From positions 1 through 23,116 of IMG/VR virus record IMGVR_UViG_3300009011_000433: 23,116 nucleotides of DNA. One strand, 5' to 3'. Shown here piece after piece: positions 3,466 through 15,415 of this stretch. Position 1 is the first letter of the stretch. Every line of letters begins with the position of its first letter. A program made the translations under genes and the position numbers. The notes under the pieces are model-generated. The model was not told the DNA's origin, did not search any database, and saw only the letters and a list, made by a program, of their open reading frames with translations. The DNA is from a virus.

Positions 3466-3480
3466 GTTGTCTACGAGATA

Positions 3481-3509
3481 AAGGTAAGTTAACTTACTAA
3501 AATAGTCAA
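3481..3509 (-). promoter_or_regulatory. Putative leftward early promoter (pL-like)
   Basis: Reading leftward, TTGACT (3509-3504) is followed after 17 bp by TACCTT (3486-3481). The -35 box is good and the -10 poor. The 14-bp operator-like palindrome lies in the spacer and overlaps the -10, so a bound repressor would block it. The transcript would begin with the leader hairpin and run through the recombination operon. Confidence 0.5.
3484..3497. promoter_or_regulatory. Operator-like perfect palindrome in left promoter
   Basis: GTAAGTTAACTTAC is a perfect 14-bp palindrome. It shares GTAAG/CTTAC half-sites with the sites between cI and cro. A further half-site AAACTTAC ends at 3531. This is the pattern expected of a CI-type repressor controlling both early promoters. 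Confidence 0.65.
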
Positions 3510-3629
3510 TAGTTAAGATAATTAAACTTACTTTTTTGTGGGAAATATGGTAAAAATACTGACTATTGCCTAGGTGCAAAAATATAGGGGGTTATCTTGA
3601 ATCACCAAGAAGTTATAATAATGCGATTA

Positions 3630-4025
3630 CTAATGGCTAGTATCATTTTTAATATTATTACTTTGATTTGTATTGTTATTTTGAGTATTAGTATTATTCA
3701 TATTTACTGAAAAATATATAGTGAGAACGATTGAGATAATTGAAGCGATAGCAGCAATACAAGAGACAATAAAAGTGGGTGTCACTGTCCAATGTGGTTT
3801 GCTAGATTTTTCAATTTGTCTAATTAGTAATTCATTACTAATTGATTGCATTATCGGTAAAGGAATTATACCTTTATATTTTTCTCCATTTAGTAAAGCG
3901 AATAAATCTTCATCAGTTAAAGCCTTAATTTCTTTAGAGGTAAGTTTTAATGGATTAAGATTTAATGTTTTTAATGGAGGTTCTTTGGATATAGCTTCCG
4001 CTATAATTTTATTTAAGTTATCCAT
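3630..4025 (-). CDS. Small single-pass membrane protein, cargo
   Basis: A 131-aa protein: a cytosolic-looking helical N-terminal part (1-77, with LTSKEIKALTDEDLFALLNG), one strongly hydrophobic segment at about 82-106 (TPTFIVSCIAAIASIISIV) and an Asn/Thr-rich C-terminal tail. AGGTT precedes the ATG at 4025. It lies 49 bp downstream of the adenine methyltransferase on the same strand and is AT-rich like that gene and the ATPase, so it may be the third member of that cargo unit. Proteins of this shape could anchor a complex or disrupt the membrane; neither is shown. No family was recognised. Confidence 0.55.
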   Translation of the reverse strand: MDNLNKIIAEAISKEPPLKTLNLNPLKLTSKEIKALTDEDLFALLNGEKYKGIIPLPIMQSISNELLIRQIEKSSKPHWTVTPTFIVSCIAAIASIISIVLTIYFSVNMNNTNTQNNNTNQSNNIKNDTSH

Positions 4026-4074
4026 TTTTAACCTATAGTTATTTCTAATCGTGGATTAGGAATAGTAGTTGCTA

Positions 4075-4935
4075 TTATAATTCTAACTCGACTTGCTTTC
4101 CAAGAATATTTACGGGCTTTATGGAATCACAATAAATCATAACTTCCGACCCTTTCATTTTAAAATAAGCACTATAATTTAAATCATAGTCATCTTGTCT
4201 ATAGCCCTTATAAATATTCTTAATCTCCTCGCAGTTATCATAAGAGACGATCCATTTTGTTTGGATTTTATCTAGAGCTTCTCTGATCTGTACATGATTC
4301 TCATGCATATAGAAATTGCGATAGAGGCCTTGGCCCTTAACATAGTATGGGGGATCAAGATATATTAGAGAATTATTTGGTAGGAGATTGTCAACTTTAT
4401 GAAGTAATTCTAAAGCGTCGTACTGGTATACTTTAATCCGGTTGCTATGATTACCTATTTTTTCGATACGTTTTGATAAATTTTCTTTATGGAAACGAAC
4501 ATCTAATTTGTAGTTACCATTTTGATTTTTTCCACCAATTACACCTCCTTTTAAGATGCCTGATCGATTTGTACGATTCAAAAAGAATGTAGCAAAACCA
4601 TGTTCAAGTTGACTAAAATCTAGGGGATTAGAAAGAATATGTTTCTGTCTATGCCATTCCTCAATAGTTACAGGGGTATCATTAATGAGCTTGAGTAATG
4701 ATTCTGTATCATTAATAATTGACTTCCAAAAATTAAAAACTGCAATATCATAATCATTTATATGGATATTTTTACAGTATCCACTAAAAAGTAAATCTAA
4801 AGCTACACCAGCCCCTCCCGCATATGGTTCGAGATAATCTGCGGTAAGACCATTTGTTTCCATCAGTTTTTTTACGAATGGAGCAAATTTTCCTTTACCG
4901 CCAGGATAGCGCAATGGGGTATGATAGATACTCAT
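4075..4935 (-). CDS. D12-class DNA N6-adenine methyltransferase (cargo copy)
   Basis: Transfers a methyl group from AdoMet to adenine N6 in DNA; MethyltransfD12/Dam-like family. At 286 aa it is full length: RYPGGK (9-14), motif I YLEPYAGGAG (34-43), the RTNRSGI region (121-127), catalytic motif IV DPPY (194-197) and WIVSYDN (228-234). It begins 20 bp after the ATPase stop without a clear Shine-Dalgarno, so it is probably translated by coupling. It differs clearly from the second D12 enzyme at 8364 (RYHGGK, EPFGGGAS). Its place beside an OLD-like ATPase suggests it marks self DNA, or that it is an orphan methylase carried with it. The target sequence cannot be read from the protein; GATC is the family's commonest. 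Confidence 0.9.
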   Translation of the reverse strand: MSIYHTPLRYPGGKGKFAPFVKKLMETNGLTADYLEPYAGGAGVALDLLFSGYCKNIHINDYDIAVFNFWKSIINDTESLLKLINDTPVTIEEWHRQKHILSNPLDFSQLEHGFATFFLNRTNRSGILKGGVIGGKNQNGNYKLDVRFHKENLSKRIEKIGNHSNRIKVYQYDALELLHKVDNLLPNNSLIYLDPPYYVKGQGLYRNFYMHENHVQIREALDKIQTKWIVSYDNCEEIKNIYKGYRQDDYDLNYSAYFKMKGSEVMIYCDSIKPVNILGKQVELEL

Positions 4936-4955
4936 AGCATATTAAAACATATAAA

Positions 4956-6806
4956 TTATTCGGAAGGCCACTTTCGATTAGAAATAAAAGAAATTGCCAT
5001 GCTGAGTTTGCTCATAAAATGGTCGACTTGCTCTGAATTGTCCTTTGTCCATCTGTCTATCAATTTAATATCTTCAAATAATGTTTTGTGCTTCTTAAAC
5101 CATGCTTTCATTAGTTCTCTATACTTAACATTCGTAAGGTTTTTTTCAAAGTCTAAGTTCAAGACGCTATTATTAAAATAATCATAATCTGTATTACCAT
5201 TATTTATTTCATAAATCTCATCCCAAAATTCAGTATCATAATTTGTTAGTTTGTCTAATAAATAATCATATATTATACGCTCCGGAGTTCTTAGCTTTTG
5301 AGGGGTATTTTCGTCAAAAGAAGAAGATCCCGGTAAACTAATAATATTTGGATTTTCATCTAATATATTGCGATTTGATTTTTCAGTATTTATATCATTA
5401 TCTGCAATAATTATAACTTCTTTAAAAAAATCATCTGCTTTAGATAAGCTTAATAGAATTGAACAACTTAATTTTAATGACACTGGTTTCAAATCAACAG
5501 AGTAAGCAAGCACTGTATTTGTTATATTTTTTGCAATAAGTAATTGTTGATAAAACCAAACTGCCTCATCATCTTCAAAATAAATTTTGATTTCTTTATT
5601 ATTTGGTTTTACTTTAGTATTTAATGATAATTGATTGTTTTTAATGTCAAAATACGAGGGATTTTTAAAAACTCTCGGGCGATAAGTATCATGTAAATAT
5701 ACAACTTTATCTAAAATTTTATTATTAGATATTAACTGCTCTTTGGGAATAGTTAATATCTTTTTAAAGATAGTTAAAGAATGTGTGGTAAAAATAATTT
5801 GTAGATTTAATCTTCTAGCTTCTTGTTTTAATAGCTCAATTAGGCTTTCTTGAGCAATATGATGTAGACCAGTATCTATTTCATCAATTAATAATATTCC
5901 GCCTTCATAAAGCTCTTTATATTCTCGTTTTAGGCTATAGAAAGAAACTAAAGCTGTAAAAATTGAACTTAATGAATCTTGTCCTAAAGAAATGGCAAAA
6001 GGATTATGTTGAAGACTTGGTATTTTGAATTTCTTGTGTGAATATTTTACATCTAAGTCAATAATACTATTATCATCTTTATTTAAATCATAATTAATTA
6101 CCCTTTTGAATAAAGAAGAGAAGTATTCCTTATCCTCATCATGCATATTTCTAATACGCTTAGTTTTAATGCTTTCTTTTATTTCACCAATTGGAGTCAT
6201 GCGACTCATACCAAGATAAATAGTTGGTATAGGCATTTTGGCATCATCACCTATATGTAGATATTCGCCAAGAGAACGATTAACACTTCGAGGTACAACT
6301 TTATATCTAACAGTTTTTTGTGTTACTTTCGATTTATTTTCTGCTGGTAACGGAGATGAAATACTTTCTTCCTCGCCTTCTTCAGAACCCTCAGTTGTAG
6401 TACTTTTTATAGGGTCACTATGGGCTGAAACATTACACTTTTTAATAAATTCATTATAGTTATTTGAATTTAATTCAACTTCTTTTTTTAGTTCATAAAT
6501 AAACTCAAAATGTCCCTTTTTCTGTAAATCACCTTGATAGTCATTTTCATCAAGGTGGAATAGCTCTTGAAAATTTGCTTGAAAAGGTAAATCAAAATAG
6601 CTTTTTTTCTTAATATAACTTTTTGTTTTTGCATTGGCTGCAGAACGTCCGCTGACTCCACTGCAATTAGCAATCAAACCCAAAAGAGTTGATTTACCTA
6701 TTCCATTTAAGCCGCCAATAACGGTTAATCTATCACCAATTTCTATTTCAATAGACTTTAATTTTCGAAAACCATTAGCATCAAAAGTAACTTTTTTTAA
6801 TTTCAC
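4956..6806 (-). CDS. OLD-like ABC-type ATPase with C-terminal TOPRIM-like nuclease domain
   Basis: A 616-aa, two-part protein. The N-terminal ATPase has Walker A GLNGIGKST (32-40), an ABC-type signature-like SLGQDSLSS (273-281), Walker B ILLIDEID (304-311, Asp308-Glu309) and an H-switch TTH (340-342). An acidic Glu/Ser linker interrupts it at about 138-152. The C-terminal part looks like a TOPRIM domain: IYFEDDE (Glu411) and IIADND (Asp469, Asp471), the acidic metal sites of OLD-family nucleases. Such ATPase-nucleases act in phage defence (P2 Old, Gabija GajA, PARIS AriA). The stop is 20 bp before the methyltransferase; the start is 17 bp after the repressor stop, so expression from the repressor transcript in lysogens is likely. 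There is no clear Shine-Dalgarno. The architecture is firm; the defence role is inference. Confidence 0.85.
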   Translation of the reverse strand: MKLKKVTFDANGFRKLKSIEIEIGDRLTVIGGLNGIGKSTLLGLIANCSGVSGRSAANAKTKSYIKKKSYFDLPFQANFQELFHLDENDYQGDLQKKGHFEFIYELKKEVELNSNNYNEFIKKCNVSAHSDPIKSTTTEGSEEGEEESISSPLPAENKSKVTQKTVRYKVVPRSVNRSLGEYLHIGDDAKMPIPTIYLGMSRMTPIGEIKESIKTKRIRNMHDEDKEYFSSLFKRVINYDLNKDDNSIIDLDVKYSHKKFKIPSLQHNPFAISLGQDSLSSIFTALVSFYSLKREYKELYEGGILLIDEIDTGLHHIAQESLIELLKQEARRLNLQIIFTTHSLTIFKKILTIPKEQLISNNKILDKVVYLHDTYRPRVFKNPSYFDIKNNQLSLNTKVKPNNKEIKIYFEDDEAVWFYQQLLIAKNITNTVLAYSVDLKPVSLKLSCSILLSLSKADDFFKEVIIIADNDINTEKSNRNILDENPNIISLPGSSSFDENTPQKLRTPERIIYDYLLDKLTNYDTEFWDEIYEINNGNTDYDYFNNSVLNLDFEKNLTNVKYRELMKAWFKKHKTLFEDIKLIDRWTKDNSEQVDHFMSKLSMAISFISNRKWPSE

Positions 6807-6823
6807 TCTAAGCTCACATAATT

Positions 6824-7471
6824 TTAAACATCCCTATACAACCCAACGACTTTTCCAACCAATTTACATCCTTCTCGGAGTGGTATGATCTTTTCATGCC
6901 ATTTAGGGTTTAAGGGTTCTAAGTACATACCGTTGCTTTCTACAATCAATTTCTTGAAAGTTGCTTCCGTTTCCCCGTCGCATGCAACGATAACCAAATC
7001 ACCTGTTTTTAAATCACTTATTTGAAAGTCAGGATTTACATATATTTTGTCACTTGGTCTAAAGTCTGGAGACATGGACTCTCCAACTACAATTAAACCG
7101 TAACCGTTTTTTCCACATTTAGGGTTTGGTGGTAACCATTCCTTAAATTCAGTACCCATTGGAATTGAATCGGCAGTAGTCCAAGTTCCTGCTTGTACCC
7201 AAGAAATAACAGGCACTAAACGACCTGCTATTGGAAATGGTGTAGTTACATTTTTATCTAGTGAATCACTCCCTTTACCACTTAACAGGTAATCAGAAGT
7301 AACCCCTAAAATTTGTGCTAATGCCATCAAACTATCGTGCTTAGGTAAGTTCTCATCCTTTTCCCAATAAATTACTGATGTTTTCGAAACTCCAATTGCA
7401 TCAGCAACTTGTTGTTGAGTTAGTTTTTTAGACTTTCTCAGATTCTTTAAACGAGTACCTAAAGTTTCCAT
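6824..7471 (-). CDS. CI-type repressor, XRE HTH plus S24 peptidase
   Basis: The lysogeny master repressor. Residues 5-63 are an XRE helix-turn-helix (LTQQQVADAIGVSKTSVIYWE). Residues from about 85 to 213 are an S24/LexA-like domain with the cleavage bond Ala94-Gly95 (WVQAG), catalytic Ser132 (GESMSP) and Lys173 (ATFKKL). It should therefore self-cleave with activated RecA, making the prophage inducible by DNA damage. Length 215 aa is usual. It is divergent from cro across a 100-bp switch region with three operator-like sites, and is followed closely on its own strand by the ATPase/methyltransferase cargo. Very confident. Confidence 0.93.
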   Translation of the reverse strand: METLGTRLKNLRKSKKLTQQQVADAIGVSKTSVIYWEKDENLPKHDSLMALAQILGVTSDYLLSGKGSDSLDKNVTTPFPIAGRLVPVISWVQAGTWTTADSIPMGTEFKEWLPPNPKCGKNGYGLIVVGESMSPDFRPSDKIYVNPDFQISDLKTGDLVIVACDGETEATFKKLIVESNGMYLEPLNPKWHEKIIPLREGCKLVGKVVGLYRDV

Positions 7472-7509: not shown

Positions 7510-7538
7510 TTGATAAGGTAAGTTTTATGTGTTTAAAT
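7510..7538 (+). promoter_or_regulatory. Putative rightward early promoter (pR-like)
   Basis: TTGATA (7510-7515) is 17 bp from TTAAAT (7533-7538), giving a start near 7545. Operator site 2 fills the spacer and site 3 covers the start point, so bound repressor would shut it off. It would drive cro and the early operon. Confidence 0.5.
7518..7531. promoter_or_regulatory. Operator-like site 2, within pR spacer
   Basis: GTAAGTTTTATGTG keeps one good half-site (GTAAGTTT); the other half is degenerate. Its complement ends AAACTTAC like the second site near the left promoter (to 3531). It lies in the spacer of the putative rightward promoter. Confidence 0.5.
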
Positions 7539-7542
7539 AAAG

Positions 7543-7556
7543 GTAAGTAAAGTTAC
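7543..7556. promoter_or_regulatory. Operator-like site 3 (cro-proximal)
   Basis: GTAAGTAAAGTTAC, with half-sites GTAA/TTAC and 10 of 14 palindromic positions, 25 bp on from site 2. It lies over the expected transcription start of the rightward promoter and just before the cro ribosome site. Confidence 0.55.
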
Positions 7557-7573
7557 TTTTATTGGTGGAATGC

Positions 7574-8082: not shown

Positions 8083-8367
8083 ATGAGCAATTTATCAGAA
8101 CAACCAGTTGAACTCAACTCACAGGAGTTTGTAGTAGGTGACATGGTAGTTATTCAAAACCACATTTTGGGGCCGCTTGGTAGCGATAGTATTTTCTGCA
8201 TCATAGAAATAAAAAGTGACTTTCTTGGTGATCATGTCTCTATGACTGACATCAACGGAAAAGTTTGGACATCTGGAGTGAGGTATATACGTCATGCCAC
8301 TGTTGCAGAAAACCAATTAAAACGCCGATTAACTGCAGAAGAATTAGCACGGGCGGAGGTGTCATGA
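8083..8367 (+). CDS. Hypothetical 94-aa early phage protein
   Basis: Begins MSNLSEQPVELNSQ; the middle is beta-rich (FVVGDMVVIQNHILGPLGSD, FCIIEIKSDFLGDHVSM) like a small SH3/KOW-type barrel, and the C-terminus is a charged helix (LKRRLTAEELARAEV). There is no clear Shine-Dalgarno. Its stop overlaps the methyltransferase start (ATGA), so the two are coupled. No family recognised. Confidence 0.65.
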   Translation: MSNLSEQPVELNSQEFVVGDMVVIQNHILGPLGSDSIFCIIEIKSDFLGDHVSMTDINGKVWTSGVRYIRHATVAENQLKRRLTAEELARAEVS

Positions 8368-9197
8368 GTAGCTTAAAACATCCGCTTATCCGTTATCACG
8401 GTGGTAAGTTCCGGATTGCTGATTGGGTTATCTCACATTTTCCCGTCCACAAAACTTATGTTGAACCATTTGGTGGCGGAGCATCAGTTCTATTTACTAA
8501 AGAGCCTAGTGTTATTGAGGTCTATAACGATTTAGATAATGAGGTCGTGAATTTATTCAAAGTACTGAGAGAACCAGACCAACGAAGATGTTTAGAAGAG
8601 AAATTGTATTTAACACCATTTTCTCGCACTGAATTCTATGATGCTTACGATGAAACTGAAGATCCTGTAGAAAAAGCCAGAAGGATGATTATTCGAGCTC
8701 AAATGGGATTTGGTTCAGCTGGAGCAACTAAAGGAAAAACAGGTTTTCGAATGGCGGGAGGCCGACAAAAGAATTATGAAATTGCATTATGGGAACGTTA
8801 CCCAAATCGATTATTACAATTTGCTGAACGATTAAAACAGGTCCTTATCGAAAACCAGCCAGCTGCAAAAGTGATTAACCAATATGACGATGAGAACACA
8901 TTATTTTTTGTGGACCCACCGTATGTAAGAAGTACTCGAACATCAAACATGACAGCTTATCGATTCGAGATGAGTGATCAGGACCATATCGATTTATTAG
9001 ATCTATTAAACCAGGTCAAAGGTAAAGTCATTTTATCGGGTTATGACCATGAGATTTACAACTCACGCTTAACACACTGGGTGAAGAAAACTAAAGCGGT
9101 ACAAGCCTCAGGAAATAGAGGGGGTGTGAGTCGCCAAGAATGCCTTTGGATTTCTCCAAATGCCCAACAAAGCGATTTATTTGGAGTGGGTTTATGA
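8364..9197 (+). CDS. D12-class DNA N6-adenine methyltransferase (early operon copy)
   Basis: Dam-like adenine methyltransferase of 277 aa with RYHGGK (10-15), motif I YVEPFGGGAS (32-41), catalytic DPPY (184-187) and VILSGYDH (222-229). Phage-encoded Dam enzymes methylate phage DNA and protect it from host restriction, or mark replicated DNA. A strong GGAGGT precedes the ATG at 8364, which overlaps the upstream stop; a start 99 bp earlier is in frame but falls inside the upstream gene. Its own stop overlaps the replication-protein start (ATGA). It is the second D12 enzyme in this prophage and only distantly similar to the one at 4075, so the two probably have separate origins. Confidence 0.9.
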   Translation: MSSLKHPLIRYHGGKFRIADWVISHFPVHKTYVEPFGGGASVLFTKEPSVIEVYNDLDNEVVNLFKVLREPDQRRCLEEKLYLTPFSRTEFYDAYDETEDPVEKARRMIIRAQMGFGSAGATKGKTGFRMAGGRQKNYEIALWERYPNRLLQFAERLKQVLIENQPAAKVINQYDDENTLFFVDPPYVRSTRTSNMTAYRFEMSDQDHIDLLDLLNQVKGKVILSGYDHEIYNSRLTHWVKKTKAVQASGNRGGVSRQECLWISPNAQQSDLFGVGL

Positions 9198-12234: not shown

Positions 12235-13167
12235 TTAATTTACTTTTAATGTAGATGTTAATTTAACTTCACCAACCTCTGTAATTCCATTCTTAAAATT
12301 TAAGTAGCTAATATTTGCAATTGGTTTTATGAGATAATCGGGATTATCAGCAGAACTCTTATCTTTCAATGTATAATCCTTTAATCTTATAGCCACAAGG
12401 CAGTTTGTTGAACCACAAATTAGAATTTTTCCTTTGAGTGGATAACTAATATTCTTATAAGTTTTATTTAAGTAGTCTTGTACTATTTCATCTTTAAAGA
12501 AAATAGGCCTATCTTCTGTTTTAAAGGAAGTTTCTGCATGAGCCTTGCCACTATTTTCTATTCCTATAAAGAATTTTAATATAGTAAGTACTAATATATA
12601 CATTAGGATGAGATAGAAGTAATAACGGCCGAACTCTTTGACTCCTTCCTCAATTTTTTTGTGATCTTGGTTTTCTTTCCAACCTACAAATTTATAAAGT
12701 GCGATATGAGTATTTAATCTTACTAGGTGGATTAGATATCGGGTAGGGCGTGTTTCTTTTGATATATTCCCAATTTTATTTTTACTTTCTTGTTTTAAAT
12801 AAGAAATTTTTAGATACCAAGATGTGGGTAGCCTTCCATAACTATCAAACCAATTATATATAAATACTAATGGAAACAATAAAAAATAGGCTAAGCCTCT
12901 AAAAATACTAATGTGAATTTGTTTATCGTATAAGGTATTTATTAGTGAAATAATTAGTAGCCCTGAAAAAAAAGCAAAGATTCCTATGAAACCATTTAGT
13001 CCCCCCAATTTAAGATACTCTTGAAGTGTAAGTCCTAAAGCTCCTTCACTGTAATCAAAATATCCCATAAAACTACTAACAAAAGAATTCCCTGATATAT
13101 ATGTAAAAACAGTTAAAGTAGTGGTTAAAAAAGTAAGATCTAAAAAAATATTTTTTCTGATAGCCAT
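12235..13167 (-). CDS. Multi-pass membrane protein, third gene of Nudix-HNH operon
   Basis: A 310-aa protein with about four hydrophobic segments (about 8-27, 58-78, 90-107 and 182-203), a basic cytosolic loop between the third and fourth, and a soluble C-terminal domain of about 105 residues containing ILICGSTNCLVAI. Its ATG is 5 bp after the HNH stop, with no separate ribosome site, so it is probably coupled to that gene. Base use is more AT-rich than in the upstream two genes. No family recognised. It could be an unrelated passenger, or the membrane component of the operon. Confidence 0.65.
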   Translation of the reverse strand: MAIRKNIFLDLTFLTTTLTVFTYISGNSFVSSFMGYFDYSEGALGLTLQEYLKLGGLNGFIGIFAFFSGLLIISLINTLYDKQIHISIFRGLAYFLLFPLVFIYNWFDSYGRLPTSWYLKISYLKQESKNKIGNISKETRPTRYLIHLVRLNTHIALYKFVGWKENQDHKKIEEGVKEFGRYYFYLILMYILVLTILKFFIGIENSGKAHAETSFKTEDRPIFFKDEIVQDYLNKTYKNISYPLKGKILICGSTNCLVAIRLKDYTLKDKSSADNPDYLIKPIANISYLNFKNGITEVGEVKLTSTLKVN

Positions 13168-13172
13168 TTATA

Positions 13173-13988
13173 CTAACTCTTTATATTTAAAAGCTTCTGT
13201 TTATCAGCCTCTGCATTCACAACATGCATTTTCTTATGGCAATTCGGGCAAAGCGCTACTGTATTTTCGACAGTATCTGGTCCGCCATGCGCTAACCATT
13301 CAATATGGTGAGTTTCCAGGTAGGGCTCACCATTTTGATCTTTAAAAGGGGCAGGTTGTTCACAGAGCTGACAAACCCCATTAGCTAAACGCTTCGCAAG
13401 TTGGGCAATCGAATCGGAACGAATAAAATATTTCGTCTTTGTATTGCGATAGCTGACTTGCGTTTGTGCTGTAGCCTGGGCATCTGCCATCAACTGCTCA
13501 ATAGATTTCTTCTTATACTTACGCTGTTTTTTCTGACTTGTGCGCTCTATAGTCTCTACGTTAATAGATGTATTCGAATCAGATAATTTAACCGGGAATA
13601 TCCAGACTAATCGATCTTGTTTATTGGCATCAGGTTGAATCTTTTGATATGGATCAGCTACGAGAGTAACAGGACCTTGATAGATATATTCCTTATCGAC
13701 AAACACTTCAAAAAGATGAACTGAAACGCCGTTAGTATGACTCTCAGCTAATGTTCTATTTTGACTTTTTAATTCCTGGTCACCGACCTGGCCCATACCT
13801 GTGTAATGCAGTTCATCACCGATCCATCGATCTTCATAGACGGATTCTACATGGTTTGAAACAATGATAAGGGTATTGGTCTTATGAGATCTACGCATTC
13901 CGCCCTGAGGTGAGCAAAGGAAGTAATCACATAATCCATCATTATCTAAAATGGTACCTGGTTTTAATCGTCTAAAATCTTTCAACAT
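13173..13988 (-). CDS. SRA-like/HNH endonuclease, McrA-type modification-dependent restriction enzyme
   Basis: A 271-aa, two-domain enzyme. The N-terminal part (about 10-135) resembles the SRA-like modified-base reader of ScoMcrA-type enzymes: NHVESVYEDRW, LHYTGMGQVGDQ, VHLFEVFVDKEYIYQGPVTL. A Lys-rich linker (150-165) follows. The C-terminal part is a Zn-stapled HNH nuclease: Cys206-x2-Cys209, His227-His228, Asn242, CPNCH (247-251), His255. Enzymes of this build cut DNA carrying 5-methyl- or 5-hydroxymethylcytosine (type IV restriction). It overlaps the Nudix gene by 7 bp and is followed 5 bp later by the membrane protein. Architecture well supported; the preferred modification is not readable. 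Confidence 0.82.
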   Translation of the reverse strand: MLKDFRRLKPGTILDNDGLCDYFLCSPQGGMRRSHKTNTLIIVSNHVESVYEDRWIGDELHYTGMGQVGDQELKSQNRTLAESHTNGVSVHLFEVFVDKEYIYQGPVTLVADPYQKIQPDANKQDRLVWIFPVKLSDSNTSINVETIERTSQKKQRKYKKKSIEQLMADAQATAQTQVSYRNTKTKYFIRSDSIAQLAKRLANGVCQLCEQPAPFKDQNGEPYLETHHIEWLAHGGPDTVENTVALCPNCHKKMHVVNAEADKQKLLNIKS

Positions 13989-14392
13989 GCTGCAGTCTTA
14001 TTATCAAGTAAGTATTTCACGATGGGGATATCAGCAGCAGCCCAGTCGAGCTGTTCTAATTCATCGATAGTGCGCCATTGTACATCCTGGTGCTCACTTA
14101 ACGCCAATTCTTCAATAGTCTTAGTCACGCACATAAAAGTGGCCAGCTCGATATTAAAGTTGGGGTAGGCGTGCTCTACAGTTAATAGATACGCTGTTAC
14201 TTCTATATCAAGATTGAGCTCTTCTTTAACTTCTCGAATGAGTGCTTGCTCGAGTGTTTCTTCAGCTTCGACTTTGCCGCCCGGGAATTCATACTTATTT
14301 GATAAATAGGGATACTTATGTTCACCTTTAAGGGCACATAAAATTTTATCCTGGTGTTGGATGACTGCAGCGACGACCTCTAGAGATTTCAT
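13982..14392 (-). CDS. Nudix hydrolase, MutT/NudG-like
   Basis: A 136-aa nucleoside-triphosphate pyrophosphohydrolase. The Nudix box is complete apart from one Gly-to-Asn change: G39-x5-E45-x7-R53-E54-V-x-E57-E58-x-N-L. The N-terminus (EVVAAVIQHQDKILCALKG) and FPGGK fit the MutT/NudG branch, whose members hydrolyse oxidised dGTP or modified dCTP (5-methyl, 5-hydroxy) to monophosphates. I chose the ATG at 14392, where the family N-terminus begins; the open frame extends 135 bp upstream through AT-rich non-coding-looking sequence. The overlap with the SRA-HNH gene suggests a shared task, perhaps keeping modified nucleotides out of the cell's own DNA. Family sure, substrate inferred. Confidence 0.85.
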   Translation of the reverse strand: MKSLEVVAAVIQHQDKILCALKGEHKYPYLSNKYEFPGGKVEAEETLEQALIREVKEELNLDIEVTAYLLTVEHAYPNFNIELATFMCVTKTIEELALSEHQDVQWRTIDELEQLDWAAADIPIVKYLLDNKTAAC

Positions 14393-14506
14393 GCAAAATA
14401 TTTTAGATGAGTTCAATATAAATATTATGCTTTGAACTGGCTTATGTTTGCACTTAATATTTAAAAGAATATAATAAAATTTCAATATAATTAAAAGGAT
14501 AAAGTC

Positions 14507-15415
14507 ATGAAAATAATAATGGTACACGGGATCAACCAGACTGATAAAGATCCTGAAACATTGAAAAAGATATGGATAGAAGCCTTCTTAGAGGGAGTAT
14601 TTCAAGCACATATACCGAATGTTCCAGCTACAACAGAATTTGAGTTTATTTACTATGGAGATCTGGTAAAGGATTATTCAAATACCCCAACTTCTAATAA
14701 AGTGTTGTTTGATTTACAGACCAGTGGATTTCATGCTTTTGAAAAAAACTTTAATGATTTGTCATTAGATGAGCAGGATATTTTAATCAATATTGCTGAC
14801 TCGATGGACGGAGATAGTACTGATGAGATGGGAACATTACCTATTGAAGGAATTCCTGTTAATTTAAAAAGTACTTTAGCTCCATATTCCTTTATAGATA
14901 AAGGTGCGAAGGCACTGATCAAAATTACGAGTAGATTTCAAAAGCTTCATACGTGGGTACTTAAGGTATTTGCCAAAGAGGCAAATCTATTTCTTGAGAA
15001 TGAACAATATAGATCACAAGTGACAGAAAGATTATTGAGTAAGATAAAAGAGGATTCCAATGAAGAAATTGTATTAGTTGGCCATTCTCTTGGTAGTGCT
15101 GTTTGTCTAGATGCTCTACAGCATTTAAATTCCTCTTATAAGATTTCTCGGTTAGTAACTTTAGGCTCTCCTTTAGGCATTCCTGTATTTTATAAATATT
15201 TCAAAGATCGTACTAAACCTTCTTCATTAAAAGGAGATTGGTTTAACTTTTATGACACGGATGACTTTGTTTCGGCTTATTTATTAACGAACCCTCCATA
15301 TAATGTTAAACCTGAGATTCAGAATTTAAGGGCAAAAACACAGTATTTTCAACCTCACTATATTGTTGGATATTTGGATGATGCTCTTGTAGTTAAAAAA
15401 ATCTTAGGTGTTTGA
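14507..15415 (+). CDS. Alpha/beta hydrolase, lipase/esterase-like
   Basis: A 302-aa protein with the alpha/beta-hydrolase landmarks: an N-terminal HGIN oxyanion loop (MKIIMVHGIN), nucleophile elbow GHSLGS (Ser194), a likely acid Asp250 or Asp252 (FYDTDDF) and His284 (QPHYIVG). It has no signal peptide, so it is cytosolic. A long insertion (about 55-165) could be a lid. AAAGGAT lies well placed before the ATG. It is divergent from the Nudix gene across 114 AT-rich bases and followed by a terminator, forming its own unit. Substrate unknown; serine hydrolases and phospholipases occur as effectors in some defence systems, which is only suggestive here. Confidence 0.75.
   Translation: MKIIMVHGINQTDKDPETLKKIWIEAFLEGVFQAHIPNVPATTEFEFIYYGDLVKDYSNTPTSNKVLFDLQTSGFHAFEKNFNDLSLDEQDILINIADSMDGDSTDEMGTLPIEGIPVNLKSTLAPYSFIDKGAKALIKITSRFQKLHTWVLKVFAKEANLFLENEQYRSQVTERLLSKIKEDSNEEIVLVGHSLGSAVCLDALQHLNSSYKISRLVTLGSPLGIPVFYKYFKDRTKPSSLKGDWFNFYDTDDFVSAYLLTNPPYNVKPEIQNLRAKTQYFQPHYIVGYLDDALVVKKILGV

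What the first reader, a model, noticed from the sequence alone, without database searches (positions are those of the whole stretch)
3630..6806. Repressor-linked OLD-like ATPase + D12 adenine methyltransferase + membrane protein: candidate undescribed defence module
Seen: an ABC-type ATPase with a C-terminal TOPRIM-like acidic set, an adenine methyltransferase 20 bp later, then a TM protein, all on the cI strand with a 17-bp gap to cI. Known: OLD-family ATPase-nucleases serve in P2 Old, Gabija and PARIS; methyltransferases protect self DNA in restriction systems. Inference: the methylase may mark self DNA, so that the ATPase-nuclease attacks unmethylated invaders, which would be a restriction-like OLD system. 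I know of no named system with exactly this pair plus a TM subunit, but I cannot search.
Basis: partly seen in the sequence, partly recalled or inferred. Interest (0 to 1): 0.78.

Follow-up and report, generated by a model that had tools for sequence, protein, structure and literature searches.

The report
Methylase-paired OLD nuclease in phage lysogeny operon
An Acinetobacter prophage carries, in the operon that keeps it dormant, a two-gene module found across many bacterial phyla: an ATP-driven OLD-type nuclease next to a DNA methylase; the same methylase is elsewhere paired with the unrelated effector of a proven anti-phage system (PD-λ-5), so it looks like a 'self' mark shared by interchangeable attack proteins.

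Summary
The genes are real: cI repressor, 616-aa ATPase, D12 adenine methylase and 131-aa membrane protein, all on the minus strand with the stated gaps. The ATPase is an OLD-type ABC ATPase with a C-terminal TOPRIM-like domain: Walker and H-loop residues plus the TOPRIM Glu, DxD, a metal-B acidic residue and a Lys are conserved in 92/92 relatives.

ATPase and methylase form a conserved pair (142 of 160 relatives from two database scans, at least 12 phyla). The membrane protein is not part of it.

New here: the methylase belongs to the PD-λ-5_B clade. Members of that clade almost always lie beside either this ATPase or PD-λ-5_A; 25 loci carry both effectors with one methylase. Effectors were exchanged repeatedly: near-identical methylases sit beside ATPases only 25% alike. 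In the window the module lies inside the immunity operon between candidate operators, the λ rexAB position.

Most likely: a restriction-like, m6A-gated OLD nuclease. Methylation marks self, and unmarked DNA licenses the TOPRIM nuclease. Whether it cuts the invader or aborts infection is untested. It fits no named system: OLD classes 1–4 lack the methylase, and PD-λ-5 lacks the ATPase. New variant of a known kind.

The parts
4956..6806 (-). OLD-like ABC ATPase with C-terminal TOPRIM-like nuclease domain, 616 aa
   Evidence: (phrog_3940 E 6e-92, function unknown)
6690..6713 (-). Walker A region, residues 32-39 (G32, K38 92/92)
5880..5900 (-). Walker B region, residues 303-309 (D308, E309 92/92)
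4959..5597 (-). TOPRIM-like domain plus helical extension, residues 404-616
   Evidence: model of 396-616, pLDDT 94.6, pTM 0.90; top matches are Xcc OLD C-terminal regions
5574..5576 (-). TOPRIM glutamate E411 (92/92)
   Evidence: counterpart by spacing of Bp OLD E400 (PMC6755086)
5394..5402 (-). TOPRIM DxD, D469-N-D471 (92/92)
   Evidence: counterpart of Bp OLD D455/D457
5280..5282 (-). E509 (E or D in 92/92), candidate metal-B ligand
   Evidence: counterpart of Bp OLD E508
5106..5108 (-). K567 (92/92), candidate catalytic lysine
4075..4935 (-). D12 N6-adenine methyltransferase of the PD-lambda-5_B clade, 286 aa; DPPY at residues 194-197
   Evidence: (PD-Lambda-5_B E 1.5e-122)
6824..7471 (-). 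cI-like repressor (HTH + S24 peptidase), first gene of the operon; host of the module, not part of it
3630..4025 (-). 131-aa single-TM protein; same operon, judged a passenger and not a conserved subunit
7514..7562 (+). candidate repressor operators in the cI-cro gap (oR-like), AAGGTAAGT repeats
3480..3535 (+). candidate matching operators downstream of the TM gene (oL-like)
   Evidence: pattern AAGGTAAGTTAACTTAC, 5 matches against 0.12 expected, all in these two intergenic regions

Best explanation
A two-gene, methylation-gated OLD nuclease system carried by a λ-like Acinetobacter prophage in its lysogenic (cI) operon. The D12 methylase places N6-methyladenine at a fixed sequence on host and prophage DNA. 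The OLD-like protein is an ABC-ATPase sensor/clamp fused to a TOPRIM-type two-metal nuclease. When DNA lacking the mark enters, ATP-driven engagement of the ATPase dimer licenses the TOPRIM domain, most likely to nick or degrade that DNA (restriction-like superinfection defence). Shown here by computation: conserved pairing, OLD-type catalytic residues, membership of the methylase in the PD-λ-5_B clade, exchange of effectors around it, immunity-operon position. Inferred: the m6A activity and a single shared target site, self/non-self gating, and DNA rather than RNA as the substrate.
For: Conserved pair: a methylase lies within two genes in 67 of 80 ATPase loci from cellular genomes (4 of the other 13 are at contig ends) and in 75 of 80 viral contigs (the other 5 end at the ATPase). 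Reverse: 17/18 close methylase relatives have the ATPase directly upstream, the 18th lying near a contig start; 39/41 wider clade members lie next to the ATPase or PD-λ-5_A; in Acinetobacter genomes 9/9. Residues: Walker A K38, Walker B D308/E309, H342, E411, D469/D471, acidic 509 and K567 in 92/92, the set that works in Bp OLD (E400, D455/D457, E508 and a conserved lysine; PMC6755086). Fold: top Foldseek hits OLD, SMC heads, GajA, retron Eco8; isolated C-terminal model, top three are Xcc OLD C-terminal regions. Self-mark role: one methylase serves two unrelated effectors, including 25 loci holding both with one methylase, and the recognition-like hairpin LNRTNRSGI..GVIGG..Q.G.YK is the same whichever the partner. 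The methylase's PD-λ-5 context is a proven defence system in E. coli (PMC9519451). In the window the module sits in the λ rexAB position between candidate operators.
Against: No activity has been tested. The TOPRIM fold match of the isolated domain is moderate (Z 6.4, Foldseek E above 0.1). TOPRIM effectors in PARIS cut tRNA, so RNA is possible. ATPases swap while the methylase stays constant, which is odd if the ATPase itself carried matching sequence specificity. PD-λ-5_A has no recognisable nuclease in Pfam, so the shared role of the methylase may be antidote or trigger rather than protection of a cut site. Nine ATPase homologues with some room on the contig lack a nearby methylase.
Confidence: 0.5

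Rival explanations
1. Abortive-infection version: the OLD-like protein is a toxic effector (DNA or tRNA nuclease). The methylase, or the mark it makes, acts as antidote/licence; when a phage blocks methylation, degrades host DNA or brings unmarked replicating DNA, the effector fires and kills the infected cell.
For: PD-λ-5, which shares the methylase, was described as a compact 'RM+Abi' system (PMC9519451); its A subunit has a ParB-like GNRR motif and an invariant distal R...H pair reminiscent of HEPN; PARIS and retron OLD/TOPRIM proteins act abortively; fast ATPase turnover beside a constant methylase suits a sensor of changing phage triggers.
Against: The OLD set with the extra acidic residue and lysine matches the DNA-cutting class 2 OLD enzymes; nothing shows toxicity.
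Confidence: 0.28
2. The methylase and ATPase act as one complex: the methylase's recognition domain finds the site and reports its methylation state, and the ATPase-nuclease cuts on command, so that specificity lies in the methylase and the ATPase is an exchangeable motor/cutter.
For: Explains why ATPases 25-28% identical sit beside methylases 94-98% identical and why PD-λ-5_A can substitute.
Against: No interface predicted here; the partners vary so much that a conserved interface would be expected to leave a trace, which was not looked for; gene orders vary.
Confidence: 0.12
3. Two independent phage genes: the methylase shields phage DNA from host restriction and the OLD-like gene is a stand-alone exclusion gene; adjacency is only shared residence in the lysogeny operon.
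For: Phages often carry orphan D12 methylases, and the window itself has a second one.
Against: The pairing holds across at least 12 phyla, on plasmids and chromosomes, in both gene orders, and in both search directions.
Confidence: 0.05

Closest known systems
PD-λ-5 (Vassallo 2022, PMC9519451)
   Same: Same methylase clade (PD-Lambda-5_B, E 1.5e-122); prophage-borne; effector plus methylase in one operon; sometimes all three genes together.
   Different: Effector is the ParB-like PD-λ-5_A there and an OLD ATPase-TOPRIM protein here; no PD-λ-5_A in the window. The E. coli locus examined has no ATPase.
Gabija (class 2 OLD, GajAB)
   Same: ABC ATPase + TOPRIM in one chain with the same catalytic constellation; GajA among the top structural matches.
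   Different: Partner is a UvrD-like helicase in Gabija, a D12 methylase here.
P2 Old / TsOLD (class 1 OLD)
   Same: Prophage exclusion gene; TsOLD (6p74) is the best Foldseek match.
   Different: Class 1 is a single gene; this one is paired with a methylase.
PARIS (class 4 OLD, AriA/AriB)
   Same: OLD-ABC ATPase with a TOPRIM effector; found in prophages.
   Different: No DUF4435 AriB; the AriA hits here match the ATPase region and PADLOC's AriA model has the length of generic AAA_21; a methylase is present.
Retron-Eco8 (class 3 OLD)
   Same: ATPase-TOPRIM effector; structural match 9lpa and PADLOC ATPase-Toprim_I-B match over residues 272-531.
   Different: No reverse transcriptase or msDNA here.
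WonAB (V. cholerae WASA-1 prophage, PMC12137116)
   Same: Two-gene prophage system built on an OLD-ABC ATPase next to a regulator.
   Different: WonB is a PD-(D/E)xK nuclease and there is no methylase.

Membership tests
OLD family nuclease (any class) | N-terminal ABC ATPase with Walker A, Walker B and H-loop | tested here: met
   K38, D308/E309, H342 invariant in 92 relatives; ABC/SMC/PtuA head fold Z about 18
OLD family nuclease (any class) | TOPRIM glutamate and DxD, with extra acidic residue and lysine | tested here: met
   E411, D469/D471, E/D509, K567 in 92/92; spacing as in Bp OLD (PMC6755086)
OLD family nuclease (any class) | C-terminal TOPRIM fold | tested here: inconclusive
   High-confidence model with four main strands, E411 after the first and DxD near the third; top three VIA matches and the sixth are OLD C-terminal regions, Z 6.4-5.5 over the whole domain, but Z is below 8 and Foldseek on the domain alone gives no E under 0.1
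OLD class 2 (Gabija) | Adjacent UvrD/PcrA/Rep-like helicase (GajB) | tested here: not met
   Neighbours are cI and a D12 methylase
OLD class 3 (retron) | Adjacent reverse transcriptase | tested here: not met
   No such gene beside it; no Rfam match in the window
OLD class 4 (PARIS) | AriB (DUF4435 TOPRIM), separate or fused | tested here: not met
   No DUF4435 match; AriAB model matched only in the ATPase region, best stretch 11-61
OLD class 1 | Single isolated gene | tested here: not met
   Conserved methylase partner in most loci
PD-λ-5 | PD-λ-5_B methylase | tested here: met
   E 1.5e-122; inside the clade in the tree
PD-λ-5 | PD-λ-5_A effector | tested here: not met
   PDLC04017 finds nothing in the record; a profile built from 23 PD-λ-5_A proteins, run on all window ORFs, left the window labelled ATPase-only
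Type II restriction-modification | Site-specific adenine methylase | not testable with these tools
   D12 fold and DPPY present; site and activity unknown
Type II restriction-modification | Cognate endonuclease blocked by that methylation | not testable with these tools
   Needs biochemistry

The most novel reading that the evidence does not exclude
One clade of adenine methylase acts as a common 'self licence' read by at least two unrelated, interchangeable effectors: an OLD ATPase-TOPRIM nuclease and the ParB-like PD-λ-5_A. Phages and bacteria exchange effector cassettes around a constant methylase, making a modular family of methylation-gated immunity to which PD-λ-5 and the window's module both belong.
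Probability: 0.5. Interest if true: 0.8.

Novelty: new variant of a known kind. Interest (0 to 1): 0.64.

Why it matters
It would add a methylase-coupled class to the OLD nucleases (now four classes, none with a methylase) and recast PD-λ-5 as one member of a larger family in which a fixed methylation mark serves exchangeable effectors. It makes testable an open question in phage defence: how OLD/TOPRIM effectors know self from non-self. The natural swaps, in which nearly the same methylase sits beside ATPases only 25% alike, are ready-made experiments that separate recognition of the mark from recognition of the phage.

Tried and rejected
TM protein as a subunit: rejected. Filing as PARIS because of the PADLOC AriA hit: rejected, since that model has the length of Pfam AAA_21 and the match lies in the ATPase region. 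Filing as PD-λ-5: rejected, A gene absent. PDC-M38A, Septu PtuA and AbiLi hits are weak ATPase-domain matches. TOPRIM by sequence against PDB: no significant match for the C-terminal profile, so it rests on residues and the model. Small genes after the methylase in other Acinetobacter prophages (L100-L116) are a different protein. Rfam search: nothing. Krishnan 2020 (gkaa726), the most likely place for an earlier prediction, is not held. Literature searches for a named OLD + methylase system found none. Searches failed on input errors or wrong handles.

Full report
OBSERVATION. The window is a 23,116-base IMG/VR record of an Acinetobacter prophage: 27 Acinetobacter phage records match parts of it at 80-90% identity. 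On the minus strand: cI-like repressor 6824-7471, 17 bp, ATPase 4956-6806 (616 aa, GTG), 20 bp, D12 methyltransferase 4075-4935 (286 aa), 49 bp, 131-aa single-TM protein 3630-4025. The cassette is poor in G+C (27-32% against about 40% around). Pfam gives AAA_21/AAA_15 and MethyltransfD12. A nearly identical set lies in a second prophage contig (L010).

POSITION. The 17-mer AAGGTAAGTTAACTTAC has 5 matches with up to 3 mismatches against 0.12 expected, all at 3481-3531 and 7540-7559; a further AAGGTAAGT copy is at 7515. These two intergenic regions flank the cI-ATPase-MTase-TM operon and look like oL and oR, placing the module where λ carries rexAB (λ comparison from general knowledge). No extra promoter stands out, so co-transcription with cI in the lysogen is likely but inferred.

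THE ATPASE. PHROG 3940, function unknown, covers the whole length (E 6e-92). A 92-member alignment (A3, 23-51% identity to the window) keeps K38, D308/E309, H342, E411, D412, D469, D471 and K567 in every sequence and an acidic residue at 509 in all. Bp OLD uses E400, D455, D457, E508 and a conserved lysine for two-metal cleavage (PMC6755086); order and spacing agree. The full model has pLDDT 89.3; best Foldseek matches include TsOLD (E 3.4e-10), GajA and retron Eco8, though the ABC part alone could drive these. The C-terminal 221 residues modelled alone (pLDDT 94.6, pTM 0.90) give Xcc OLD C-terminal regions as the three best VIA matches (Z 6.4-6.0, 155-160 residues), with Bp OLD and retron Eco2 close behind. 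Z is moderate and Foldseek on this piece is not significant, so the TOPRIM assignment rests on residues, topology and these matches together.

PAIRING. Profile scans fetched 80 loci from cellular genomes and 80 from viral contigs, the best of 237 and 169 relatives. A D12 methylase of one family lies within two genes in 67/80 and 75/80. All 5 viral exceptions and 4 of 13 cellular ones end at the ATPase. The cellular set spans Bacillota, Bacteroidota, Pseudomonadota and at least nine more phyla. Gene order varies (MTase upstream in 19), so the link is not one inherited operon. Several loci lie beside type I or III restriction helicases. Reverse searches agree: 17/18 close methylases have the ATPase directly upstream, the 18th near a contig start; 39/41 wider clade members have the ATPase or PD-λ-5_A near; 9/9 loci in 149 Acinetobacter genomes and 4/5 in 247 genomes of a Bacteroidales MAG's order, the fifth a broken methylase. 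More distant phage Dam enzymes have neither partner.

LINK TO PD-λ-5. The methylase is a PADLOC PD-Lambda-5_B protein (E 1.5e-122). A ~460-aa neighbour family in 22 ATPase loci is PD-Lambda-5_A (E down to 7e-214; RefSeq 'ParB N-terminal domain'). With more loci, 25 hold ATPase, PD-λ-5_A and exactly one methylase-clade gene, in several orders, often with overlapping ends (in L276 the ATPase is seen only as a 79-aa piece at the locus end). PD-λ-5 protects E. coli from nearly all of ten phages tested and was called a compact RM+Abi system (PMC9519451). The E. coli locus examined, in a P2-like prophage, has A and B but no ATPase. The window has B and the ATPase but no A.

EFFECTOR EXCHANGE. On a tree of 159 methylases the partner label changes 21 times (minimum 2; strongly supported branches alone force at least 8 changes for the ATPase-only group). 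ATPases 25-28% identical sit beside methylases 94-98% identical (L150/L156, L036/L082). In L150/L156 the DNA is 93-98% identical on both sides while the ATPase gene does not align. The methylase hairpin LNRTNRSGI..GVIGG..Q.G.YK, which I take by analogy with Dam for the base-reading region, is the same whatever the partner. Reading: the mark is constant and effectors are cassettes.

THE TM GENE. Only the sister prophage has a full homologue among ATPase loci. Its residues 31-80 recur in Acinetobacter phage YMC11/11/R3177, in the cI operon, without ATPase or methylase. It is a passenger of the same operon.

MECHANISM. Best: m6A marks self; the OLD ATPase-TOPRIM protein acts on unmarked DNA. Rivals: abortive effector with the methylase as antidote; a methylase-guided complex; unlinked genes. 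The first three share the gating step; what the nuclease cuts and whether the cell survives cannot be settled here.

NOVELTY. OLD classes 1-4 are defined without a methylase (PMC10568477). No library or paper searched names this pair. OLD-ABC ATPases in RM-like systems were predicted by Krishnan 2020 (cited in PMC12839542), which could not be read, so a prior computational mention is possible.

Noticed in passing
window 13173-14527 (-), with 12235-13167 (-): Weak SRA-like plus HNH endonuclease (type IV methyl-directed restriction, PADLOC mREase_IV E 4e-18) next to a NUDIX protein and a membrane protein: a second possible defence cassette in a low-GC region.
   Followed up: partly
window 8265-9197 (+): A second D12 methylase, of the ordinary phage Dam kind (phrog_56), 21% identical to the first and without an effector beside it.
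   Followed up: partly
window 14507-15415 (+): Lipase/alpha-beta-hydrolase-like ORF in the same low-GC accessory region.
   Followed up: no
L040, L041, L048, L071, L077, L078, L085, L087, L088: ATPase homologues with no nearby methylase although the contig continues; some lie beside large restriction helicases.
   Followed up: no
L173; L001:6001-7769: ATPase gene interrupted by a 310-aa ORF in one prophage and split into two frames on a Psychrobacter plasmid, while the methylase stays intact.
   Followed up: no
L102, L103, L105, L100, L116 (gene after the methylase): A different family of small (151-180 aa), possibly membrane-associated proteins occupies the slot after the methylase in related prophages.
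   Followed up: partly
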